Shown: piece after piece, positions 53,985-64,000 of the stretch
Layout: each line of letters opens with the position of its first letter
Position numbering within the stretch: the stretch's first letter is position 1
Source of the DNA: Allostella vacuolata
GTDB taxonomy: Bacteria > Pseudomonadota > Alphaproteobacteria > ATCC43930 > Allostellaceae
DNA length: 64,000 nucleotides
NCBI GenBank assembly: GCA_006739055.1
Contig: AP019702.1
Coordinates: forward strand, 806,501-870,500
Reading direction: 5' to 3'
Made by a program: the position numbers and the translations under genes
Notes under the pieces: model-generated
Told to the model about the DNA's origin: nothing
Seen by the model: the letters and a program-made list of their open reading frames with translations, nothing else
Databases searched by the model: none

Positions 53985-55271
53985 ATGACTGCCATTGCCG
54001 ACCTGTCCGCCACGGACCTCGACCAGCGCCTGCGGCAGACCCGCCAGGAGTACGAGGCGTTCCGCGCCCGCGGCCTGAAGCTCGATATGACCCGTGGCAA
54101 GCCGGCGCCCGACCAGCTCGACCTGGCCGCCGGCATGCTGGCCCTGCCCGGCAACCGCGACCATTTCACCGAGGCGGGCGAGGATGCACGCAACTATGGC
54201 GGGCTGCAGGGCCTGCCGGAAGCGCGCGCGCTGTTCCAGGCGATGATGGGGGCGGACGCCGGGCGCATCGTCGTCGGCGACAACTCCAGCCTCGCCCTGA
54301 TGCATGACTGCCTGGTCTGGGCGCTGCTGAAGGGCGTGCCCGGCTCGGCCCGGCCCTGGTCGAAGGAGGAGGCGCCGGCCTTCCTCTGCCCGGTGCCGGG
54401 CTACGACCGCCATTTCGCCCTCTGCGAGGAGTTCGGCATCCGCATGCTGCCGGTGCCGCTGACCGGCGAGGGCCCGGACATGGACCGGGTCGAGGCGCTG
54501 GCGGCGGACCCGTCGGTCAAGGGGATGTGGTGCGTGCCGAAATACTCCAACCCCAGCGGCGAAGTCTATTCGGACGCGGTCGTCGCCCGCCTGGCGGCGA
54601 TGGCGACCGGGGCGCCCGACTTCCGCCTGTTCTGGGACAATGCCTATGCGGTCCACCACCTGACCGAGGAGCGGCGGGCGATCGCCAACATCCTCGACCT
54701 CTGCCAGGCGGCGGGCCATCCCGACCGTGCCTTCGTCTTCGCCTCCACCTCGAAGATCACGCTCGCCGGAGCCGGGCTGGCGCTGTTCGCGTCCTCGCCC
54801 GGCAATGTCCGCTGGTACCTGGCGCGGGCGGGCAAGCGCACCATCGGGCCCGACAAGCTGAACCAGATCCGCCATGTCCGCTTCCTGCGCGACGATGCCG
54901 GGCTGCAGCGGCACATGGACGGCCACCGCCGCCTGCTGGTGCCGAAGTTCGATGCGGTCGACGCGGCCTTGCAGGCGCGGCTGGCCGGCACCGGTGCTGC
55001 CCGCTGGACGAAGCCGGCCGGCGGCTACTTCATCACGGTCGACGCCGTGGACGGCACCGCCCGGCGGGTGGTGGAGCTGGCCCGCGACGTCGGCCTGGCC
55101 CTGACGCCGGCGGGGGCCACCTGGCCGAAGGGGCAGGATCCGCGGGATTCCGGCCTGCGCCTCGCCCCGACCTTTCCCTCGCTCGACGAGGTTCGCCTCG
55201 CCTCGGAGGGGATCGCGCTCTGCATCCTGCTGGCCGGGCTGGAGCAGCAGCAGGCGGCCATCGGCGGATAG
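53985..55271 (+). CDS. Aminotransferase, aspartate-type class I fold
   Basis: A 428-residue PLP enzyme of the aminotransferase group represented by Pfam PF12897. Marks include LKLDMTRGKPAPDQLDL, YGGLQGLPEARALFQ, WDNAYAVHHL with the cofactor Asp, and the PLP Lys in FASTSKITLAGAGLALF. C-terminal FITVDAVDGTARRVV and RLAPTFPS hold the substrate-carboxylate Arg. Reported members use aspartate. ATG 53985 has CGGAGAC upstream. Not obviously linked to stress genes. Confidence 0.88.
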   Translation: MTAIADLSATDLDQRLRQTRQEYEAFRARGLKLDMTRGKPAPDQLDLAAGMLALPGNRDHFTEAGEDARNYGGLQGLPEARALFQAMMGADAGRIVVGDNSSLALMHDCLVWALLKGVPGSARPWSKEEAPAFLCPVPGYDRHFALCEEFGIRMLPVPLTGEGPDMDRVEALAADPSVKGMWCVPKYSNPSGEVYSDAVVARLAAMATGAPDFRLFWDNAYAVHHLTEERRAIANILDLCQAAGHPDRAFVFASTSKITLAGAGLALFASSPGNVRWYLARAGKRTIGPDKLNQIRHVRFLRDDAGLQRHMDGHRRLLVPKFDAVDAALQARLAGTGAARWTKPAGGYFITVDAVDGTARRVVELARDVGLALTPAGATWPKGQDPRDSGLRLAPTFPSLDEVRLASEGIALCILLAGLEQQQAAIGG

Positions 55272-55281
55272 GACATGCGGA

Positions 55282-55311
55282 AAGGGCGCCGGCGTTGCCG
55301 CCGGCGCCCTT
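55282..55311. terminator. Bidirectional terminator between aminotransferase and PRC-barrel gene
   Basis: A 12-bp perfect stem (55282-55293 with 55300-55311) with loop GTTGCC, 10 bp after the aminotransferase stop and 20 bp after the stop of the facing gene. Likely terminates both. Confidence 0.75.
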
Positions 55312-55331
55312 CCTGGCTTCAGGCCCGAGGG

Positions 55332-55769
55332 TTAGCCCTTGAATTCGGGCTGACCCTTGAGCTGCTCCTTGGTCACGTTGTAGGTGATGGTGCTGTCGGT
55401 GCCGAAGGACAGCTCGCTCCACGGCACGGCCACCTTGCGGTCGCCGATGCCGAGGAAGCCGCCGACGGACAGCACCGCCATCACCACCTGATCCTTCTCG
55501 CGGACCACGAGGTCGTCGATCGAGCCGACGGTCTCGCCGGCGCTGTTCTTGACGTTGGTGCCGATGATCTTGGTCACCCGCATCCCGGTGGTCGGGTTGC
55601 CCATGTCGCGCTGGGCGGCGGGCGCCCGGGCGGCGGGCGGGGTGATCGGGGCCGGCGTCACTACGGCCGGACGGTCGGTGGTCGGGGCCGGCATCGTGGT
55701 CTGCGCCATGACGGGCGCGGCGGCGATGGCACCGGCGGCGGCGAGAATGGCGATCAGCGACGTACGCAT
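55332..55769 (-). CDS. Exported PRC-barrel domain protein
   Basis: A 145-residue protein with a signal peptide (MRTSLIAILAAAGAIAAAPV ending MAQ), a Pro/Ala/Thr-rich linker and a PRC-barrel domain (IGTNVKNSAGETVGSIDDLV, MAVLSVGGFLGIGDRKVAVP). PRC-barrels bind partners or RNA in other contexts; the secreted type is common in stress regulons of alphaproteobacteria. ATG 55769 follows AGGAGGATTTC, an excellent ribosome site, which overrules the longer upstream frame. An EcfG-type promoter lies about 115 bp upstream. Confidence 0.88.
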   Translation of the reverse strand: MRTSLIAILAAAGAIAAAPVMAQTTMPAPTTDRPAVVTPAPITPPAARAPAAQRDMGNPTTGMRVTKIIGTNVKNSAGETVGSIDDLVVREKDQVVMAVLSVGGFLGIGDRKVAVPWSELSFGTDSTITYNVTKEQLKGQPEFKG

Positions 55770-55884
55770 GAAATCCTCCTGGTATCGAAGTGGATCCTGT
55801 CCGGGGCCGACTGGCATGCCCATGTCCGCAACTGTTAAGCTGCTTGACCGCAGGCCGTGTGCCGTCGTCCCCCGATGCCAAGAC

Positions 55885-55909
55885 AACCGCCCATTCTTCG
55901 ATTGGTTCC
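55885..55909 (-). promoter_or_regulatory. EcfG-type promoter of the exported PRC-barrel gene
   Basis: On the minus strand GGAAC (55909-55905), 16 bases, then GGTT (55888-55885). It differs from CGTT at one base. It faces the plus-strand EcfG-type promoter 25 bp away, so the two form a divergent pair. Confidence 0.7.
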
Positions 55910-55934
55910 GCCCGGCAGGGGGATGAATTCACCG

Positions 55935-55959
55935 GGAACCTTCGCCCGCTGCGCGCGTT
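55935..55959 (+). promoter_or_regulatory. EcfG-type promoter of the DUF883/YqjE-like pair
   Basis: GGAAC (55935-55939), exactly 16 bases, then CGTT (55956-55959), a perfect consensus, ending 34 bp before the ATG. Confidence 0.8.
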
Positions 55960-55993
55960 CGCTTGCGGGAACTCAAGCCCGAAAGGAACTTCC

Positions 55994-56308
55994 ATGGCCA
56001 CGTCCGACCGCGAGGTGCGTAAGTTGAAAGCCAGCGTCCAGTCCCTGCAGAGCGCGCTCGCCACGATCGCCGGCGACATCGAACAGATCGCCGGCAGTGC
56101 CGGCAGTGCCGGTGCGGCCGGCCTCGAGCACACCAAGGCCAAGCTGGAGGATATTCGCGAGCAGATCGGCGACCTCGTCTCCGACCAGGTCGACCGGGCC
56201 GAGGAGATGGGCCAGTCGGTGAAGAAGTCGGTGGTCGAGAACCCGATGGCGGCCCTGGCCGCCGCGTTCGCCGCCGGGGTCGCCGCCGCCATCCTGCTGC
56301 GCCGCTGA
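55994..56308 (+). CDS. DUF883 (ElaB/YqjD-like) membrane-anchored protein
   Basis: A 104-residue protein: a long amphipathic helical segment (about residues 5-80, LKASVQSLQSALATIAGDIE and AKLEDIREQIGDLVSDQVDR) and a C-terminal membrane helix (AALAAAFAAGVAAAILLRR). This is the ElaB/YqjD plan, which tethers ribosomes to the membrane in stationary E. coli. An internal GSAGSAGAAG stretch comes from a small direct repeat. It has AAAGGAAC as ribosome site and a perfect EcfG-type promoter upstream. Confidence 0.82.
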   Translation: MATSDREVRKLKASVQSLQSALATIAGDIEQIAGSAGSAGAAGLEHTKAKLEDIREQIGDLVSDQVDRAEEMGQSVKKSVVENPMAALAAAFAAGVAAAILLRR

Positions 56309-56724
56309 TGGGCGCGCTCCTCCGCCTGCTGGCGGTCGGGCGCGCCGCCGCTTCGGTGCGGGCGCAGGCAAGGATCGCCTGCCTCCGTGCCGGATTCGGT
56401 GCGGCGGTGGCGCTGCTGGTGGCGGTGGGGCTCGGTTTCATGGTGGCGGCCGGCCACGAGTGGCTGCGCTGGCATTTCTCCGGACCCCAGGCGTCGGCCA
56501 TCGTCGGCGGCGGCTTCCTGGGCGTGGCGCTGATCGTCGCGATCATCGCCCATTTCGTGCTGCGCCGGCAGCGCCGGGCCCCGCCCGCCGCGGTCGACCC
56601 GGCCGCGGCCACCCTGGCGGCGCTGGGCCCGCTGGCGTCGGCCGTATCGTCCCTGTCGCCGGCGATCCTGGCCGCCGCCGTGGCCGGCTTTATCTACGGC
56701 TTCCGCGGCAAGCGCGGCGATTGA
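56308..56724 (+). CDS. YqjE/holin-like two-helix membrane protein
   Basis: A 138-residue protein that starts in the stop of the DUF883 gene (TGATG). It has two helices in the middle (about residues 28-50 and 62-88, with ALLVAVGLGFMVAAGHEWL and IVGGGFLGVALIVAIIAHFV) and a further hydrophobic C-terminal stretch. The pairing with a YqjD-type gene and the size fit YqjE-like proteins. Function unknown; stress-induced membrane stabilisation is inferred. Confidence 0.75.
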   Translation: MGALLRLLAVGRAAASVRAQARIACLRAGFGAAVALLVAVGLGFMVAAGHEWLRWHFSGPQASAIVGGGFLGVALIVAIIAHFVLRRQRRAPPAAVDPAAATLAALGPLASAVSSLSPAILAAAVAGFIYGFRGKRGD

Positions 56725-56754
56725 CGGCCATCCGGCGGGCTGCCGGCCGCGGCG

Positions 56755-57546
56755 TCAGGCGATCGGCAGCGCGGCCAGATAGTCGCCCGCCTCCGCGCCG
56801 AGCTTTTCCTTCACCGCCGCCCGCAGCCCTGCATAGTGCTCCTGGTTGAGGGTCATCTTCCGCGCGGCGGCCCAGAACCGGATCTCCTCCGACCCCCATG
56901 TCCAGAACAGGGACCGCCGGCGCCGGTCCGACGCCTCGAAGCGGAACGCCCCGATCGCGAGCGAGAGGGCGCCGTTGGCCGACCGCTCGACGGCGCCGAG
57001 CTGGAAGTTGCCGCTGCGCTCGGCCTGGGCCTGCAACTCGAAGACGCGGATGGCCCCGTCCTCGTCGGCCAGGTTCTTCATCACCTCGATGGCCTTGACC
57101 AGGATCGCCAGCTGGTTGCCCGTGGCGACCGTCGCGATCACGTCGAGCGCCGACCGGTCCATCCGGAACGTGCCCGACCCGGAGCGCCGCTCGCTGAAGG
57201 CGAAGCTCTCGCCTGCCCAGCCGAGCCGTTCGAGCACCGCGACATAGACCTCGTACCAGGCGTCGGTCGCCGTGTGGCGGTCATGCCGGGCGCTGGCCGC
57301 GCGTTGGGCGAGCTGGGTGGAGAACAGGACGTCGCTCTTCTCCGCCGGGGTGACGCCCGCCACGAACGAGACCAGCGAGCCCGCATTCACCGCGGCGCGC
57401 AGCCGCCCGCCCACCGCCACATCGATGTCCGCACTCGCTTCGCCGCGGCGCAGCGCCTCGAACGGCCCGGGGCGCGGGCCTGGTGGCGGGTGCAGCCGTG
57501 CATCCCGGGCCAGATCGAGTGCCGCGATGAATTCGAGATCGGTCAT
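56755..57546 (-). CDS. Unassigned 263-residue protein coupled to the CHAT-TPR gene
   Basis: I do not recognise its family with confidence. It has no signal peptide and no long hydrophobic helix. An initial Gly/Ala/Pro-rich segment is followed by a mixed alpha/beta part: GGRLRAAVNAGSLVSFVAGV, STQLAQRAASARHDRHTATD, WYEVYVAVLERLGWAGESF, SALDVIATVATGNQLAILVK and ARKMTLNQEHYAGLRAAVKE. Its ATG overlaps the stop of the upstream CHAT protein gene (ATGA), so the two are made together. That context suggests a substrate, effector or regulator of the CHAT protease. It is convergent with the YqjE-like gene, 30 bp apart. Confidence 0.7.
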   Translation of the reverse strand: MTDLEFIAALDLARDARLHPPPGPRPGPFEALRRGEASADIDVAVGGRLRAAVNAGSLVSFVAGVTPAEKSDVLFSTQLAQRAASARHDRHTATDAWYEVYVAVLERLGWAGESFAFSERRSGSGTFRMDRSALDVIATVATGNQLAILVKAIEVMKNLADEDGAIRVFELQAQAERSGNFQLGAVERSANGALSLAIGAFRFEASDRRRRSLFWTWGSEEIRFWAAARKMTLNQEHYAGLRAAVKEKLGAEAGDYLAALPIA

Positions 57547-60500
57547 CGGGGGGCGTCCTGTGCACTTGCCGGCGGCGCGTCGGGTTCCGTGCCGGCGATC
57601 CTCGCCCGCAGGTCCCGGACCTGGCCGACGCCGTCGGCGCGGCCGAGCATGGCATGGGCCTGCTCGACCTCGTCGAGCACTTCCAGCGCCGCGTCGCGGT
57701 GCCCGCCCATGGCCATCACCTGCGCCAGCAGGCCGCCGGTCGCGGCGACACCGTCCGGCAGGCCGAGACGCCGGGCGATCGCGAACGCCTCGGCGAGCGC
57801 GTCGAAGACCTCCTGGACGCGGCCGTCCTCGATGGCGCCAGCCTCCAGGAGTGTGGTTGCGATCCTGTGCAGAGTGACGGAGCGGGACCGGACGTCGCCG
57901 AGGCGGTCGAATATCGGCAACAGTTCTTCGGTGCGGATGCGTAGGGCCTCGTCGAGCTGTCCGCGGGCGTGGAGGATGTCGGCGATCTTGCCCATGGTGA
58001 CGGCGCGGGAGCGGACGTCGCCGAGGCGGTCGTAGACGGGGAGCTCCTCCGCGGTGCGGATGCGCAGGGCCTCGTCGAGCTGTCCGCGGGCGTGGAGGAT
58101 GTCGGCGATCCTGCCCATGGTGACGGCGCGGGACCGGACGTCGCCGAGGCGGTCGAATATCGGCAACTGTTCATCGGTGCGGATGCGCAGTGCCTCGTCG
58201 AGCTGTCCGCGGGCGTGGAGGATGTCGGCGATCTGGCCCATGGTGACGGCGCGGGACCGGACGTCGCCGAGGCGGTCGTAGACCGGCAGCTGTTCGTCGG
58301 TGCGGATGCGCAGGGCCTCGTCGAGCTGTCCGCGGGCGTGGAGGATGTCGGCGATCTTGCCCATGGTGACGGCGCGGGACCGGACGTCGCCGAGGCGGTC
58401 GTAGACCGGCAGCTGTTCCTCGGTGCGGATGCGCAGGGCCTCGTCGAGCTGTCCGCGGGCGTGGAGGATGTCGGCGATCTTGCCCATGGTGACGGCGCGC
58501 TCCCGGACGTCGCCGAGGCGGTCGAATATCGGCAGCTGTTCTTCGGCGCGGATGCGCAGGGCCTCGTCGAGCTGTCCGCGGTCGTGGAGGATGTCGGCGA
58601 TCTTGCCCATGGTGACGGCGCGGGACCGGACGTCGCCGAGGCGGTCGTAGACGGGGAGCTCCTCCTCGGTGCGGATGCGCAGTGCCTCGTCGAGCTGTCC
58701 GCGGTCGTGGAGGATGTCGGCGATCTTGCCCATGGTGACGGCGCGGGAGCGGACGTCGCCGAGGCGGTCGTAGACGGGGAGCTCCTCCGCGGTGCGGATG
58801 CGCAGGGCCTCGTCGAGCTGTCCGCGGGCGTGGAGGATGTCGGCGATCTGGCCCATGGTGACGGCGCGGGAGCGGACGTCGCCGAGGCGGTCGTAGACCG
58901 GGATCTCCTCCTCGGTGCGGATGCGCAGGGCCTCGTCGAGCTGTCCGCGGGCGTGGAGGATGTCGGCGATGTTGCCCATGGCGACGGCGCGGGACCGGAC
59001 GTCGCCGAGGCGGTCGTAGACGGGGAGCTCCTCCTCGGTGCGGATGCGCAGTGCCTCGTCGAGCTGTCCGCGGGCGTGGAGGATGTCGGCGATCTTGCCC
59101 ATGGTGACGGCGCGCTCCCGGACGTCGCCGAGGCGGTCGTAGACGGGAATCTCCTCCTCGGTGCGGATGCGCAAGGCCTCGTCGAGCTGTCCGCGGTCGT
59201 GGAGGATGTCGGCGATCCGGCCGGCACAGATCGCTGCGGCTCTGTCGTCGCCCGCGGCGGTGAAGACGGTCCGGGCGCCGTGGATGAGAGGCTCAGCCTT
59301 CTCGCCTTCCCCTTTGCGCAACATGCGTTCGGCACGTCGGACATCTAAGGCGGCGCGGGCGGTGTCGGGCGCGCCCGTGCGGGGCGGGCGGACGGGGGCT
59401 TCGCACAGGCGGTCGGCGAAGGCGCCGTCGCCGGTCAGGACGGCGCATTCGATGCCGAGCCGCAGGAACGCCGGGCCGGCGGCATGGCCGGGCGGCAGGG
59501 CCGCGAAGGCGGCGCGGATGAGGTCCAGCGCCTCGGCGTTGCGGTCTTCGCGGCGGGCGAGCCAGGCGGCGCCGGCCCGTACCGCGGCCTCCAGCCGGCC
59601 GGGCGATGCTGCGCCCGCCAGCGCGATCCTGGCTGCCACGACTCCACGAGGGGCGGTGGGAAAATCTCCATCCGCGTCCGCCCAGGCGGTATCGAGTTCG
59701 GGGAATGCGGCGCGGGCGAGGCGGGGCCGGTCGGCCGGATCGAGCGGCGCGGCGAGCGGCCGCGCGAGCGGGTTGGCCGCCGCATGGGCATGGCCGTCGA
59801 TCGTGCCATGGTCGTCGAACAGCCCGAGGCCGACGAGGCGTGCCACCGCGGCCGCGGCGCCCTCCGTGCCGAGCGCGGCGCCCGCCGCCGCCAGCGCCGC
59901 CTTGGGGATCGGCACGCCCTCGGCGAACAGGGTCGCGGCCGAAAGCTGGCGCGCCTGGTCCGCGCTCAGCGCCGCCCGGTAGGCGGCGAAGGAAACCCGC
60001 CGGAAGAAGGCGACCAGCGCATTCTCCGCGTCCCCCGTTGCGTCTTCGGCGAGCAGCCGCTCGATCTCGGCCGGCGGGGCGCCGTGCGCCCGGTAGTGCT
60101 CGATCTGCCCGATCGCTGCCTCGGCGGCCCCGAACTCGGCGGCGAGGATGGGCCGGGTCAGCACTGCCTGGAGGCCGGGGTTGCCGCCCGCCGCTGCCAG
60201 CGCGCGGCCGCACAGCGCCACCGCCCGCGCGCCGAGGGCGGCTGCTTCCTGCCCGACGATCCGCTCGAACGCACGCAACTGCTTCACCCGCTCCCGATCC
60301 GTCATCGGGGCGAGGGGCACGCGCACAAGGTCGGCCGCAAGATCGCGCCGGCCGTCCGCCAGCCTGAAGTCGTAGCGGCTGGTCAGCAGCAGCCGGGAGC
60401 GCGTGCGCGCCCGCGCGAACCCCGCCAGGATTGCGGCCAAGGTGGGGCGAAAGCGACCCTGCACGCCGGTTGCCGCGGCGGCGGGTGTCGGCGGCTCCAG

Positions 60501-62093
60501 GATCTGTTCCAGGTCATCCACGATCAGGAGGATGGGCGCGGCATCGAACGGCCCCTCGAGCAGGCTTTCCAGCGCGTCGGCGAGCCTGCCATGGTCGGCC
60601 TCGACCATCTCCCGCCAGGCGTCCTCGGTCGCCTTGCGCTCCAGGGGCGGCAAGGCGGCCACCAGCGCGGCCAGCACCGCGGGCGCGTCGTAGCGATCGA
60701 ACACCACGACCGTCTCGTTCCTGAACCGGCTCGCCACCCGTGCCGCCAGGCTCGACTTGCCGAGCGCCCCCATGCCGTGCACGAGCGCGGCCGACCCGTC
60801 GCGGAAGGCCCGCAGCACCGCCTGGATGCGCCGTCGCCGGCCGACGAAGGCATCCCGCGATGCCACCTGGGAGCGCCCGCGATGCCGATCGAGGAACGCC
60901 GGCGCGTCTCCGCCGGGCCGGCGCAGGTGTCGCGGCCTGGCCGCCGCGCACAGCGGCCCGCCGCCGCCGGGGCCGAGATAGATCCGCGCCAGATGCCAGT
61001 GCTGCCCTTTCCGGGGGTCGGTGTCTCGCAGCTGCAGCAGGTCGCGCCGGGCCTGGGCCGCCGCCCACGCCACCCGGGCACCCCTTCCAAGCTCGTCGTA
61101 GAATGTCCGGGCGAACGCCGTGGCGTCCTGGTCGTAGACGGAGCCGTCCCAGGCCAGGACATGGGCGACCTGCACCGCGAGCTGGCGCGCGAAGGAGGCC
61201 GTCAGCGCGATGCCGCCTCCCGCCCGTGCCGCGTCCAGGTCCCGGCGAACGCCGTCCTTGGTCGCCCGCGGACCTGTCCTTCTGTCGGCGCCTGCGCCCA
61301 TCTCCGCCGTCCGGCACCCCGACAGCGCCACCAGCAGCGGCCGGGTCTCGCCCAGCGCGCGGATCACGGCCCCCGCCGTCACCGGGTCCGCGTTTCCCTC
61401 CGGTGTCTCCAGGTACAGGATCGGACCGTGCTTCGGATGGATGCCGCCGTGGCAGGAGAGGTGCAGGGCCTCGAACGGCCCCTCGTCCGAGGCGAGGCGT
61501 TCGGCGAGGAATTCCAGCGCGCCCGTCTCTTCCACCACGACGTCGACCCGGCGCGCCCCGCCGCGGCTGGTCGCCTCCAGGATCGCCGCCTCCTCGGCCT
61601 CGAACTCCAGCTCGACAAGGCCTTCCGGGGCGGAAGCCATGAACATCAGCCGCACGTCCTGGAACGGCGCCTCGACCAAGGCGCCCGCCGGCCCGATCCG
61701 CCGCGCGACCACGAACAGCCGCAACGGGTCGCCCGCCAGCCGCTGGTCCCCTTTCGCCAGAAGCTCCCAGGGCGCGTCGAGCAGTGCCGCCTCCGCGGCG
61801 TCGCCGTCCGTCCCCGGAACCCGGATTTCCAGCTCCCGGTCGCCGGGCGCAGACGCCCAGGCCGTGGCCCAGCCGGCCTCGTCGAGCCAGGCGAACATCT
61901 CCTGGCCGATAGCCAGCAACTCGCCCGCGTCGTCGCGCGCCGACGCCCCGTCGTAGCGCGCCGACCATCCCTGCAGCATCGGCAGTACCGTATGGTCGCC
62001 GGCGGTCGCGAAGCGCGTTTCGGCCGCACCGGCCAGCCCCGGCGCGCGGCAGCGGATGTCGAAGCCAATCAGTTCGATCAATCCCAGCGCCAT
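57543..62093 (-). CDS. CHAT protease-STAND NTPase-TPR repeat protein
   Basis: About 1,516 residues. Order: an N-terminal CHAT caspase-like domain (about 1-380) with catalytic His in [10 protein letters not shown] and Cys in [14 protein letters not shown]; a STAND/NB-ARC ATPase (about 420-820) with Walker [17 protein letters not shown] and Walker [13 protein letters not shown]; a helical linker; eleven near-identical 41-residue TPR-like repeats (57864-59216); and an about 100-residue helical end. The plan is that of sensor proteases in which ligand binding to repeats drives NTPase oligomerisation and protease activation. The start is uncertain: ATG 62093 or a TTG at 62129; neither has a clear ribosome site. 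The 3' end overlaps the 263-residue gene. Confidence 0.85.
57864..59216 (-). repeat. Eleven tandem 123-bp repeats encoding 41-residue TPR-like units
   Basis: Period exactly 123 bp (for example IAD codons at 57986 and 59216 are 10 periods apart). Consensus unit begins [20 protein letters not shown], then [20 protein letters not shown] plus one residue (K, Q, N or R). Variation is confined to a few positions: A/D in HARG/HDRG, T-E/A/D-E, E/Q/L before LP, VY versus IF, and RSRA versus RERA. Nucleotide identity between units is very high, indicating recent amplification or gene conversion. Confidence 0.95.
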
Positions 62094-62180
62094 GCGCCAC
62101 AGCCCAATGCGATCGAATATCGCAATCAACCATACACGCGGTCATCCGCCATGCAACCATCGGTACGGCGGGCCGACGCG

Positions 62181-62208
62181 AAAAAGGGCACCGCCTTGCG
62201 GCGATGCC
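62181..62208 (-). terminator. Intrinsic terminator of the cytoplasmic PRC-barrel gene
   Basis: On the minus strand GGCATCGCC - GCAA - GGCGGTGCC (one wobble pair) is followed by CTTTTT, 30 bp after the gene's stop. It separates this gene from the CHAT-TPR operon. Confidence 0.8.
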
Positions 62209-62237
62209 CCTTGCGGTCGCGCTGTTCTGGGCTCGTG

Positions 62238-62615
62238 CTACATCCAGTAGGGCGGCACGCGGTAATAGTCGTGCACCTTCTTGCCCCAGGCCTGGTCGTC
62301 GTAGTTGGGCGTCTCGGCCGCGTCATAGACCGGGGCGCCTTCGAGCGCGGTCTTGTCGAGGTCGACCACATACCCGCCCTGGCCGCGATGGTAGGTCAGC
62401 ATGCTCCAGGGCAGGGGGTGGTACTTCTCGCCGATGCCGAGGAAGCCGCCGAAGGACATGACCGCGTAGGCGACCTTGCCGCTCGGCTTGTCGATCATCA
62501 CCGTCTTGATGGAGCCGAGATGATCGCCCGACCGGTTGTAGACGGCCGTGCCTTCGACCCGATCGGCGGCGATGAGGGAGCCGTTGCCGACCTTCGAAAC
62601 CACTTCTTCCTGCAT
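62238..62615 (-). CDS. PRC-barrel domain protein, no signal peptide
   Basis: A 125-residue protein: [20 protein letters not shown], then a PRC-barrel ([40 protein letters not shown]) and a basic/aromatic end ([14 protein letters not shown]). It lacks the leader of the 55.3-kb paralogue, so it is probably cytoplasmic. ATG 62615 has GGAAG upstream. A consensus EcfG-type promoter lies about 55 bp before it. Confidence 0.9.
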
Positions 62616-62668
62616 GTCTCTTCCTTCCTGAATCCGGCCCCGGTCTCGATCGGGGAGTTGCTTGTTCC

Positions 62669-62694
62669 AACGCCGGCCGTCGCGCCGCGGTTCC
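62669..62694 (-). promoter_or_regulatory. EcfG-type promoter of the cytoplasmic PRC-barrel gene
   Basis: On the minus strand GGAAC (62694-62690), 17 bases, then CGTT (62672-62669): a perfect consensus. Confidence 0.8.
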
Positions 62695-62731
62695 GCGGGG
62701 GGCCGGCCTGGGACCGCCGGCCGTCGGGAAG

Positions 62732-62757
62732 GGAACGGGCGCCGCGCGAGACGCGTT
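62732..62757 (+). promoter_or_regulatory. EcfG-type promoter of the DUF1328 gene
   Basis: GGAAC (62732-62736), 17 bases, then CGTT (62754-62757): a perfect consensus, back to back with the minus-strand promoter at 62694. The transcript would have an about 75-base leader. Confidence 0.78.
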
Positions 62758-62837
62758 TGCCGGTGATCGACCTGGCCGCGACGCACCGGGGTGTGACGCA
62801 TCGGGGGCGTCGGGCCGCCGCAGAAGGAACGAAACCC

Positions 62838-63002
62838 GTGCTCTACTACGCCCTCGTCTTCCTCGTCGTCGCGCTGATCGCGGGCCTGCTCGGATTCGGC
62901 GGCGTGGCCGCGGTGTCGACGGACATCGCGCAGATCCTCTTCTTCATCTTCCTGGTCGGCTTCGTCATCACGCTGCTGATGCATGCGTTCCGGCGGCGCT
63001 AG
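62838..63002 (+). CDS. DUF1328 / UPF0391 small membrane protein
   Basis: A 54-residue protein starting at GTG after [27 protein letters not shown] and [20 protein letters not shown] are textbook for the DUF1328 (YtjA-like) family: two helices with a short loop. Function is unknown; it is often in the general stress regulon of alphaproteobacteria. It is preceded by an EcfG-type promoter. Confidence 0.9.
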
Positions 63003-63044
63003 CCGCGCCGGCCGCCGCCAGCGGGTCTCGGCGCGGGTTCGCCT

Positions 63045-63070
63045 GGAACGCGGCGGCGGCCGGCGGCGTT
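63045..63070 (+). promoter_or_regulatory. EcfG-type promoter abutting a small membrane gene
   Basis: GGAAC (63045-63049), 17 bases, then CGTT (63067-63070), a perfect consensus. It ends only 8 bp before ATG 63079, so RNA would begin at or next to the start codon (leaderless), or the ATG at 63088 is used, or the match is fortuitous. Confidence 0.6.
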
Positions 63071-63078
63071 TCCCCGGC

Positions 63079-63252
63079 ATGCCGAACATGAATCCGAACG
63101 AACGGGAACAAGAGGCCGCGAGCGGCCACGACGTTACCCCCACCGAGGCCCGGCAGGGCACCGAAACCCATCGCGTGCGCTATGTCCTGGGCACGTCCCT
63201 GGCTGCAGCCGTGGTGGCGCTCGGCGTCGTGGTCGTGCTGTTCGTCCTGTAG
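63079..63252 (+). CDS. Small single-span membrane protein
   Basis: A 57-residue protein: a polar N-terminal half (MPNMNPNEREQEAASGHDVT, PTEARQGTETHRVRYVLG) and one C-terminal helix (TSLAAAVVALGVVVVLFVL). The EARQG-x-x-x-x-RYVLG pattern recurs in small alphaproteobacterial membrane proteins of unknown function. No ribosome site precedes either ATG (63079 or 63088), which fits a leaderless message. Confidence 0.7.
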   Translation: MPNMNPNEREQEAASGHDVTPTEARQGTETHRVRYVLGTSLAAAVVALGVVVVLFVL

Positions 63253-63285
63253 CGGCCGCGATCGCCGGCGCCCGCCGGCGCAAGA

Positions 63286-63316
63286 ACGGCCCCCGAGCGG
63301 ATGCTGCGGGGGCCGT
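63286..63316. terminator. Bidirectional hairpin between convergent genes
   Basis: A perfect 10-bp stem (ACGGCCCCCG / CGGGGGCCGT) with an 11-base loop between the small membrane gene and the facing 100-residue gene. Short T-runs are lacking; terminator role inferred from position. Confidence 0.55.
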
Positions 63317-63348
63317 CTGGCGGTCAGGGCAACCGGGCGCCGGGTGGT

Positions 63349-63651
63349 TCAGGCCCCTCCGGTCTTGGTCGGCGCGCCCTCGTCGGGGGATTCGACCCCG
63401 AGCTTGGCCAGCGCGGCATGGACCTGGCGCAGCTGGTCGCCGGTCCGGTCCCCCGGCCCGGGCGCCATGTTCTCGTCGGCCGCCACCATGAGCAGGCGCA
63501 GGTCGACATCCCACTGCTTCAGAAGGGCCACCTTCTCGTCCTGGGAAAACTCGGTCGAGGCGACCACGGCCGCCGGGTGGCCGAAGAACTTGGCGACGTC
63601 GGCCGTCGCCTCCACGAACCGCTGCTTTTGTGGCGCGGTGGCTGGGGTCAT
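63349..63651 (-). CDS. Hypothetical 100-residue stress-linked protein
   Basis: A soluble, mostly helical protein with the segment FSQDEKVALLKQWDVDLRLL followed by MVAADENMAPGPGDRTGDQL, similar to small alphaproteobacterial proteins with an LLKQWexDLRxLxVAxxENM pattern whose function is unknown. ATG 63651 has GGGAG 8 bases upstream. It follows the 23-residue membrane peptide gene by 17 bp on the same strand, so both should be read from the EcfG-type promoter at 63809. Confidence 0.7.
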   Translation of the reverse strand: MTPATAPQKQRFVEATADVAKFFGHPAAVVASTEFSQDEKVALLKQWDVDLRLLMVAADENMAPGPGDRTGDQLRQVHAALAKLGVESPDEGAPTKTGGA

Positions 63652-63668
63652 CAGTGATCTCCCTTGGT

Positions 63669-63740
63669 TCAGGTGAAGAGCCAGATCAGGAAAATGATCG
63701 GCAAGGGAATGCCCAGCAGCCAAAGCAGTATCAACCGCAT
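63669..63740 (-). CDS. 23-residue hydrophobic membrane peptide
   Basis: The frame reads MRLILLWLLGIPLPIIFLIW then LFT and stop, a single membrane helix with a central Pro. GGAGGA lies 4 bases before the ATG. Downstream of a perfect EcfG-type promoter (about 45 bp). Peptides of this type occur repeatedly next to stress genes in alphaproteobacteria. Function unknown. Confidence 0.65.
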   Translation of the reverse strand: MRLILLWLLGIPLPIIFLIWLFT

Positions 63741-63784
63741 GATTCCTCCGTCGTTTCCCGCAGGGCGCATCCTGGTCCCGGCAA

Positions 63785-63809
63785 AACGCCAGGTGAAGAA
63801 ACCGGTTCC
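63785..63809 (-). promoter_or_regulatory. EcfG-type promoter of the small peptide/100-residue operon
   Basis: On the minus strand GGAAC (63809-63805), exactly 16 bases, then CGTT (63788-63785), a perfect consensus. Its -35 box lies 12 bp from that of the csbD promoter on the other strand. Confidence 0.82.
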
Positions 63810-63821
63810 CCAATTTACTTT

Positions 63822-63847
63822 GGAACGCGCATCGGCGTCGGGAGGTT
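63822..63847 (+). promoter_or_regulatory. EcfG-type promoter of csbD-like gene
   Basis: GGAAC (63822-63826), 17 bases, then GGTT (63844-63847), one base off CGTT, ending 38 bp before the csbD ATG. Confidence 0.7.
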
Positions 63848-63885
63848 GATTGGGCATTGGATCCATTGAACGAAGGAGAACTCTG

Positions 63886-64000
63886 ATGAACTGGGATCAG
63901 ATCGCCGGCAACTGGAAGCAGGCCAAGGGCAAGGTCAAGGAGCAGTGGGGCAAGCTGACCGACGACCAGCTCGACGTGATCGACGGCAAGCGCGACCAGC
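63886..64000 (+). CDS. CsbD family stress protein (3' end outside window)
   Basis: The first 38 residues are visible: MNWDQIAGNWKQAKGKVKEQ, then WGKLTDDQLDVIDGKRDQ. This is the CsbD hallmark (W-x-Q-x-KGK-x-KE-x-WGKLTDDD). CsbD proteins are small, abundant general-stress proteins of unknown mechanism. AAGGAG lies 6 bases before the ATG, and an EcfG-type promoter is just upstream, so it belongs to the stress regulon. The gene continues past the right edge. Confidence 0.93.
   Translation, partial: MNWDQIAGNWKQAKGKVKEQWGKLTDDQLDVIDGKRDQ

What the first reader, a model, noticed from the sequence alone, without database searches (positions are those of the whole stretch)
57543..62129. CHAT protease-STAND-TPR protein with eleven nearly identical 41-residue repeats
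Seen: His (LHLSCHGG) and Cys (LSGCRTAEM) of a CHAT protease, Walker A/B of a STAND NTPase, and a perfectly periodic 123-bp array with changes at only a few positions. Known: CHAT and STAND-TPR proteins act as immune or cell-death sensors in bacteria. Inference: the array is a recently expanded sensor surface that can change copy number by recombination, and the few variable positions may set specificity. It sits within a stress regulon island, not in an obvious defence island.
Basis: partly seen in the sequence, partly recalled or inferred. Interest (0 to 1): 0.85.

Follow-up and report, generated by a model that had tools for sequence, protein, structure and literature searches.

The report
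Mobile bacterial protease-sensor gene pair
A bacterium carries an inserted pair of genes, a caspase-like protease joined to a molecular switch and a long, recently multiplied repeat array, plus a partner protein of an unnamed family whose relatives often sit beside such proteases; it looks like an immune or cell-suicide device with swappable parts, which nobody has yet tested.

Summary
ORF 57543-62129 (-) encodes a CHAT protease, a STAND NTPase and eleven TPR-like 41-residue units; catalytic His and Cys and both Walker residues are invariant in 15 of 15 aligned rows. The array was amplified within this gene: its 11 units form one clade among 66 units from nine genes, which hold 5-11 units each. 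Specificity-setting variable positions are not supported (dN/dS 0.46).

The next gene (56755-57546, P0002, 263 aa) overlaps by ATGA, and the two genes form a 5.4-kb insertion: all three congeners held have an empty site. Six orthologues, including the sister protein, carry at that position an unrelated 121-132 aa protein (predicted membrane segment in five), so the partner was probably swapped. P0002 belongs to a family without a Pfam match. At 9 of 23 family loci a CHAT, caspase, trypsin or subtilisin domain is fused or lies within three genes; at others the neighbours are housekeeping genes.

Best reading: a mobile, NLR-like two-gene module: TPR array senses, STAND switches, CHAT cuts, and the coupled partner is substrate or adaptor. 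Sensing, cleavage and defence are inferred. New variant of a known kind.

The parts
57543..62129 (-). CHAT-STAND-TPR gene, 1528 codons from TTG (likelier start ATG at 62093, 1516 aa)
60996..61643 (-). CHAT peptidase domain (residues 163-378), dyad H227 and C272
   Evidence: Pfam; invariant in 15 of 15 rows
60171..60863 (-). STAND NTPase (residues 423-653), Walker A K458, Walker B D538
   Evidence: Pfam AAA_16 and nSTAND1; invariant in 15 of 15 rows
57894..59246 (-). array of eleven 41-residue (123-bp) TPR-like units
56755..57546 (-). P0002, 263-aa partner gene, overlapping the CHAT gene by 4 nt (ATGA); unnamed family
56725..62178 (.). two-gene insertion; the flanks (holin-like gene stop at 56724, terminator of the PRC-barrel gene at about 62179) adjoin in three congeners
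62094..62178 (-). only space left for a promoter of the pair (no sigma-70 consensus match found)
   Evidence: inference

Best explanation
A horizontally acquired two-gene conflict module that works like an NLR. At rest the STAND domain is closed; a ligand (phage or stress cue, unknown) binds the C-terminal TPR superhelix; the STAND domain exchanges ADP for ATP and multimerises; the N-terminal CHAT proteases are brought together and cut. The translationally coupled downstream protein is the module's private partner, either the substrate released or activated by cleavage or an adaptor of the protease, and the output is growth arrest or death of the infected cell. The partner slot is exchangeable: a small protein, mostly with a predicted membrane segment, in most close orthologues, a P0002-family protein here. 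The TPR array renews itself by unequal recombination or conversion. Shown: domains, conserved residues, 4-nt overlap, insertion of the pair, partner difference, array amplification. Inferred: switching, cleavage, partner role, death, defence.
For: CHAT, STAND and TPR domains and invariant catalytic and Walker residues. The pair is absent as a unit from three congeners, whose flanks adjoin with about 91 bp (G001) and 114 bp (G002) between the aligned blocks, and likewise in G003. Six orthologues have another partner in the same slot, overlapping by 4 nt in five and 17 nt in one; the window protein is sister to one of them (L040, support 0.997). In Azospirillum brasilense (L043) the orthologue and its partner lie alone between a resolvase gene and TniQ, TniB and Mu-type transposase genes. 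The P0002 family is fused to GDSL-caspase-M15 proteins in L027 and L131 and lies by CHAT, caspase, trypsin or subtilisin genes in seven more loci. In L132 a CHAT-STAND protein 49.8% identical to the window's over residues 78-727 is followed by a TCAD7-CHAT gene, a lipase-subtilase gene and a P0002-like gene. The single C14 match in G591 and in G817 (genome of L003) is the one fused to or beside the P0002-like domain, and the single CHAT match in the host genome is the one beside P0002. Published parallels: TPR-bearing CHAT protease activating a gasdermin from a two-gene cluster in Podospora (passages of PMC12881547); STAND-TPR autoinhibition (abstract of PMC6468293).
Against: No function was measured and no ligand is known. 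In the same sample of 397 genomes the two families meet only in the window's own genome (9 genomes with P0002-like; 8 with a strong CHAT-STAND match); the second meeting (L132) has a CHAT-STAND gene that ends before the TPR region. 14 of 23 P0002-family loci showed no such peptidase nearby (one of them, L006, is a broken copy of L004's locus), and the neighbours scanned in L029, L030, L034 and L133 are ordinary metabolic or membrane genes, so the family can work without one. L123, L124 and four gammaproteobacterium-like orthologues have neither partner. The host's own C14 caspase (C1:2000476) is not near P0002. PADLOC gave no meaningful hit and the site is not a defence island.
Confidence: 0.6

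Rival explanations
1. The partner is a non-catalytic adaptor or localiser of the protease (like the Trypco or EAD domains of known conflict systems) rather than a cleaved effector.
For: C-terminal fusion to multi-enzyme GDSL-caspase-M15 proteins; partners with different peptidase classes; no catalytic motif or Pfam match; no strong hydrophobic segment (maximum KD19 1.43).
Against: Six close orthologues do without it. Standalone and tandem copies exist without a peptidase seen nearby. A fused domain could equally be a pro-domain or substrate.
Confidence: 0.4
2. P0002 is an immunity protein or inhibitor that keeps the neighbouring hydrolase or toxin in check.
For: The family sits beside many hydrolases and, in two genomes of one genus, beside a large TcdA/TcdB-pore protein, in tandem copies; tandem copies also occur in Sinorhizobium.
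Against: Fused within the same polypeptide as the enzymes in L027 and L131; orthologous CHAT genes exist without it.
Confidence: 0.15
3. The CHAT-STAND-TPR gene is a housekeeping or stress regulator that happens to lie in the general stress region.
For: It lies among stress-type genes (PRC-barrel neighbour; NepR- and EcfG-like ORFs by eye).
Against: Empty site in all three congeners held; patchy distribution: 3 of 387 genomes of the class, 8 of 45 with a strong match in the genus of G083; beside transposition genes in L043.
Confidence: 0.08
4. The array's homogeneity is selection for a regular superhelix or an assembly effect, without sensor meaning.
For: dN/dS 0.46 and 0.48; conservative changes; drift and conversion suffice to homogenise.
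Against: Units differ at 20 of 41 codons and the variants are reassorted between distant units (units 4 and 10 are 98% identical), which a collapsed assembly would not give; number varies among relatives.
Confidence: 0.35

Closest known systems
EACC1 two-gene conflict system (Kaur et al. 2020, PMC7159879, passages seen)
   Same: Two genes; caspase-superfamily protease with variable C-terminal domains including STAND NTPases and repeats; in the close orthologues a small protein with a membrane helix between alpha+beta ends.
   Different: The small gene is 3', not 5'; it gives no Pfam match at E 1 or better that bears the EACC1 name; in the window the slot holds P0002, without a predicted membrane helix.
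Fungal two-gene gasdermin cluster with a TPR-bearing CHAT protease (PMC12881547, passages seen)
   Same: CHAT protease with TPRs next to a single partner gene.
   Different: P0002 gave no gasdermin match; its model failed (pLDDT 34), so fold is untested.
Fungal HNWD NLRs (HET-D/HET-E) with high internal conservation (PMC12222747, passages seen)
   Same: STAND-type receptor with near-identical, concertedly evolving repeats of variable number.
   Different: TPR instead of WD40; no evidence of diversifying selection here.
TPR-CHAT (Csx29) of Craspase (PMC9729208, abstract in search listing)
   Same: TPR plus CHAT protease.
   Different: No STAND domain and an RNA-guided partner there (recalled); here STAND and no CRISPR part was sought.
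Repeat proteins of 42 residues with high internal identity (Marold 2015, seen only as a reference)
   Same: TPR-like repeats with high internal identity.
   Different: 41 residues here; direct comparison not made.

Membership tests
CHAT peptidase (PF12770) | Score above the curated cut-off | tested here: met
   46.7 bits against 24
CHAT peptidase (PF12770) | His and Cys dyad kept | tested here: met
   H227 and C272 in 15 of 15 rows
CHAT peptidase (PF12770) | Proteolytic activity | not testable with these tools
   no assay
STAND NTPase | P-loop and Walker B, nSTAND1 or AAA_16 match over cut-off | tested here: met
   36.3 against 27.1 and 42.5 against 32.6 bits; K458 and D538 in 15 of 15 rows
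STAND NTPase | Effector, NTPase, repeat sensor order | tested here: met
EACC1 two-gene system | Small gene with one TM helix and alpha+beta ends beside a caspase-type gene | tested here: not met
   Window: P0002 is 263 aa with no hydrophobic peak above 1.43. Orthologues: 6 small genes, peak in the segment in 5 of 6
EACC1 two-gene system | Small gene is 5' of the protease gene | tested here: not met
   It is 3' in the six orthologues
EACC1 two-gene system | Sequence match to EACC1 | tested here: inconclusive
   No such Pfam match for the three small genes scanned; presence of the model in this copy was not verified
Bacterial gasdermin pair | Partner has the gasdermin fold | tested here: inconclusive
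   No Pfam match, no PDB sequence match of note, model unusable
High-internal-conservation NLR (HNWD-like) | Repeats over 80% identical, evolving in concert | tested here: met
   mean 87% aa, 90% nt; one clade
High-internal-conservation NLR (HNWD-like) | Hypervariable positions under diversifying selection | tested here: not met
   dN/dS 0.46; site ratios at most 1.3 without a significance test
Craspase TPR-CHAT | Encoded with gRAMP, CRISPR array and Csx30 | not tested
   no array search was run; weak Cas5d hits in the repeat region look like chance

The most novel reading that the evidence does not exclude
P0002 founds an unrecognised family of protease-associated effector or adaptor proteins that serves CHAT, caspase, trypsin and subtilisin systems alike, plugging into different proteases as gasdermins do; here it replaced an ancestral membrane partner of an NLR-like CHAT protease whose TPR sensor renews itself by repeat recombination.
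Probability: 0.3. Interest if true: 0.8.

Novelty: new variant of a known kind. Interest (0 to 1): 0.6.

Why it matters
If true, it gives a compact bacterial NLR-like module with a defined protease, a defined partner and a natural partner swap, so that substrate and output of a CHAT-STAND receptor become directly testable. It also ties concerted repeat evolution, known from fungal NLR sensors, to a bacterial protease receptor, and names a protein family to test beside caspase and CHAT genes.

Tried and rejected
P0002 by library: no Pfam match at E up to 1, none of note for nine family members (one hit, DUF6221, E 0.02), no NCBIfam or PADLOC match, PHROG only at E 0.076, no phage record (with a Vibrio member), no IMG/VR relative. 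PDB by sequence: nothing of note. Structure of P0002 with two sequences failed (pLDDT 34) and was not used for a fold search. The CHAT profile finds one PDB CHAT entry weakly (8tl0, E 0.00098). PADLOC 'Cas5d' and NCBIfam hits inside the repeats were put down to chance. Inverted-repeat search around L043 showed no convincing transposon ends, so I claim neighbourhood only, not cargo with borders. The one 'CHAT' match in the Tn7 cargo paper PMC8649781 was an author name. Base composition does not mark the insertion (GC 0.71-0.78 against 0.65-0.75). Literature searches for a published CHAT-STAND-TPR plus partner system found no description of this pair; subscription journals are mostly absent from that library.

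Rows dropped before counts: L130 is the same record as L009, L120 the same as L043; both were counted once. L109, L076, L077 and L075 have a cut or broken 3' end and were left out of the partner count. L080 and L081 are weak matches and were left out of the 15-row alignment.

Full report
What is there. H227, C272, K458 and D538 are identical in 15 of 15 aligned rows (window and 14 homologues). The likelier start is the ATG at 62093.

The array. Eleven 123-bp units follow one another without indels. Helix A is unit position 1-17 and helix B 21-39 in a confident single-sequence model; the best PDB matches are TPR superhelices. Among nine genes the unit count is 11 (window), 6, 5, 5, 11, 10, 6, 5 and 7. 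In a tree of 66 units the 11 window units form one clade, one other gene (L078) does so too, and seven genes do not; gene labels change 14 times against a mean of 46.7 in shuffles. So homogenisation is strong in the window, moderate elsewhere. Units differ at 20 of 41 codons; dN/dS is 0.46. The variants are reassorted: units 4 and 10 are 98% identical although six units apart. Variable positions 3 and 10 correspond, by my recollection of TPR numbering, to groove positions; no call tested that.

The pair. P0002 (56755-57546) overlaps the CHAT gene by four bases. BLASTN of window 54000-64000 against the three congeners held shows flanks present and the pair absent: in G001 the aligned blocks end and resume 91 bp apart, in G002 114 bp apart, and in G003 the same genes adjoin. 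None of the three has a P0002 match anywhere. The terminator of the PRC-barrel gene lies at the right border in the window and in G001, leaving about 85 bp for a promoter of the pair.

Partner swap. Orthologues L040, L041, L043, L119, L121 and L122 have at this place a 121-132 aa gene of one family, overlapping by 4 nt in five and 17 nt in L040; a hydrophobic segment stands out in five of six. L123 and L124 show neither partner, nor do L074, L078 and L079. The window protein is sister to L040 (0.997), so replacement of the small partner by P0002 is the simplest history. In L043 (Azospirillum brasilense plasmid) the two genes lie between a resolvase and TniQ, TniB and Mu-type transposase genes.

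The P0002 family. It was found in 9 of 397 genomes of the phylum, 2 of 387 of the class with the single protein, 1 of 43 of the order, 6 of 315 in the family of G591, and 48 plasmid records, 45 of Sinorhizobium. I examined 23 loci. A CHAT, C14, Trypsin_2 or S8 domain by Pfam is fused or within three genes at nine: window, L003, L004 and L008, L011, L027, L131, L132 and L134; L006 is a broken copy of L004's locus and was not scanned. At the other 13 I saw none: neighbours in L029, L030, L034 and L133 were scanned and are ordinary genes, L007 and L009 partly, the rest judged from annotation or ORF beginnings only. L028 and L033 lie beside TcdA/TcdB-pore proteins. The rate by chance was not measured; but C14 gave one match per genome in G000, G591 and G817, and in the last two that match is the fused or adjacent one, while in G000 it is elsewhere; CHAT gave one match in G000, the neighbour of P0002. 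L132 joins a CHAT-STAND protein 49.8% identical to the window's (residues 78-727) to a P0002-like gene over two intervening hydrolase genes; there the CHAT-STAND frame ends before the TPR region. Within the 397-genome sample only the host has both families.

Mechanism. From published STAND-TPR work (abstract of PMC6468293) and from CHAT-gasdermin and EACC1 pairs (passages of PMC12881547 and PMC7159879), I infer sensing by TPR, switching by STAND, proteolysis by CHAT and output through the coupled partner. Whether P0002 is substrate or adaptor is open; its C-terminal fusion to caspase proteins fits both.

Verdict. Real, new in detail, of a known kind.

Noticed in passing
L028:9334-15963 and L033:62-5599: In two genomes of one gammaproteobacterium-like genus, tandem P0002-like genes lie beside a large protein with TcdA/TcdB pore domain (and glycosyltransferase domain in L028). 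Described only.
   Followed up: no
L027:7808-13432 and L131:7274-12886: A conserved two-gene unit: GDSL-caspase-M15-P0002 fusion with an upstream papain-like and hydrolase-like protein (C1 match only at E 0.03).
   Followed up: partly
L003:4519-7698: A protein joining alpha/beta hydrolase, M17 N-terminal and CHAT domains, divergent from a P0002-like gene that is followed by the only C14 caspase match of that genome.
   Followed up: partly
window:52947-53856: NepR-like and EcfG-like ORFs (by eye) mark a general stress response locus next to the insertion.
   Followed up: no
L004, L005, L006, L010: Sinorhizobium symbiotic plasmids carry several P0002-like copies among insertion sequences, some broken.
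   Followed up: partly
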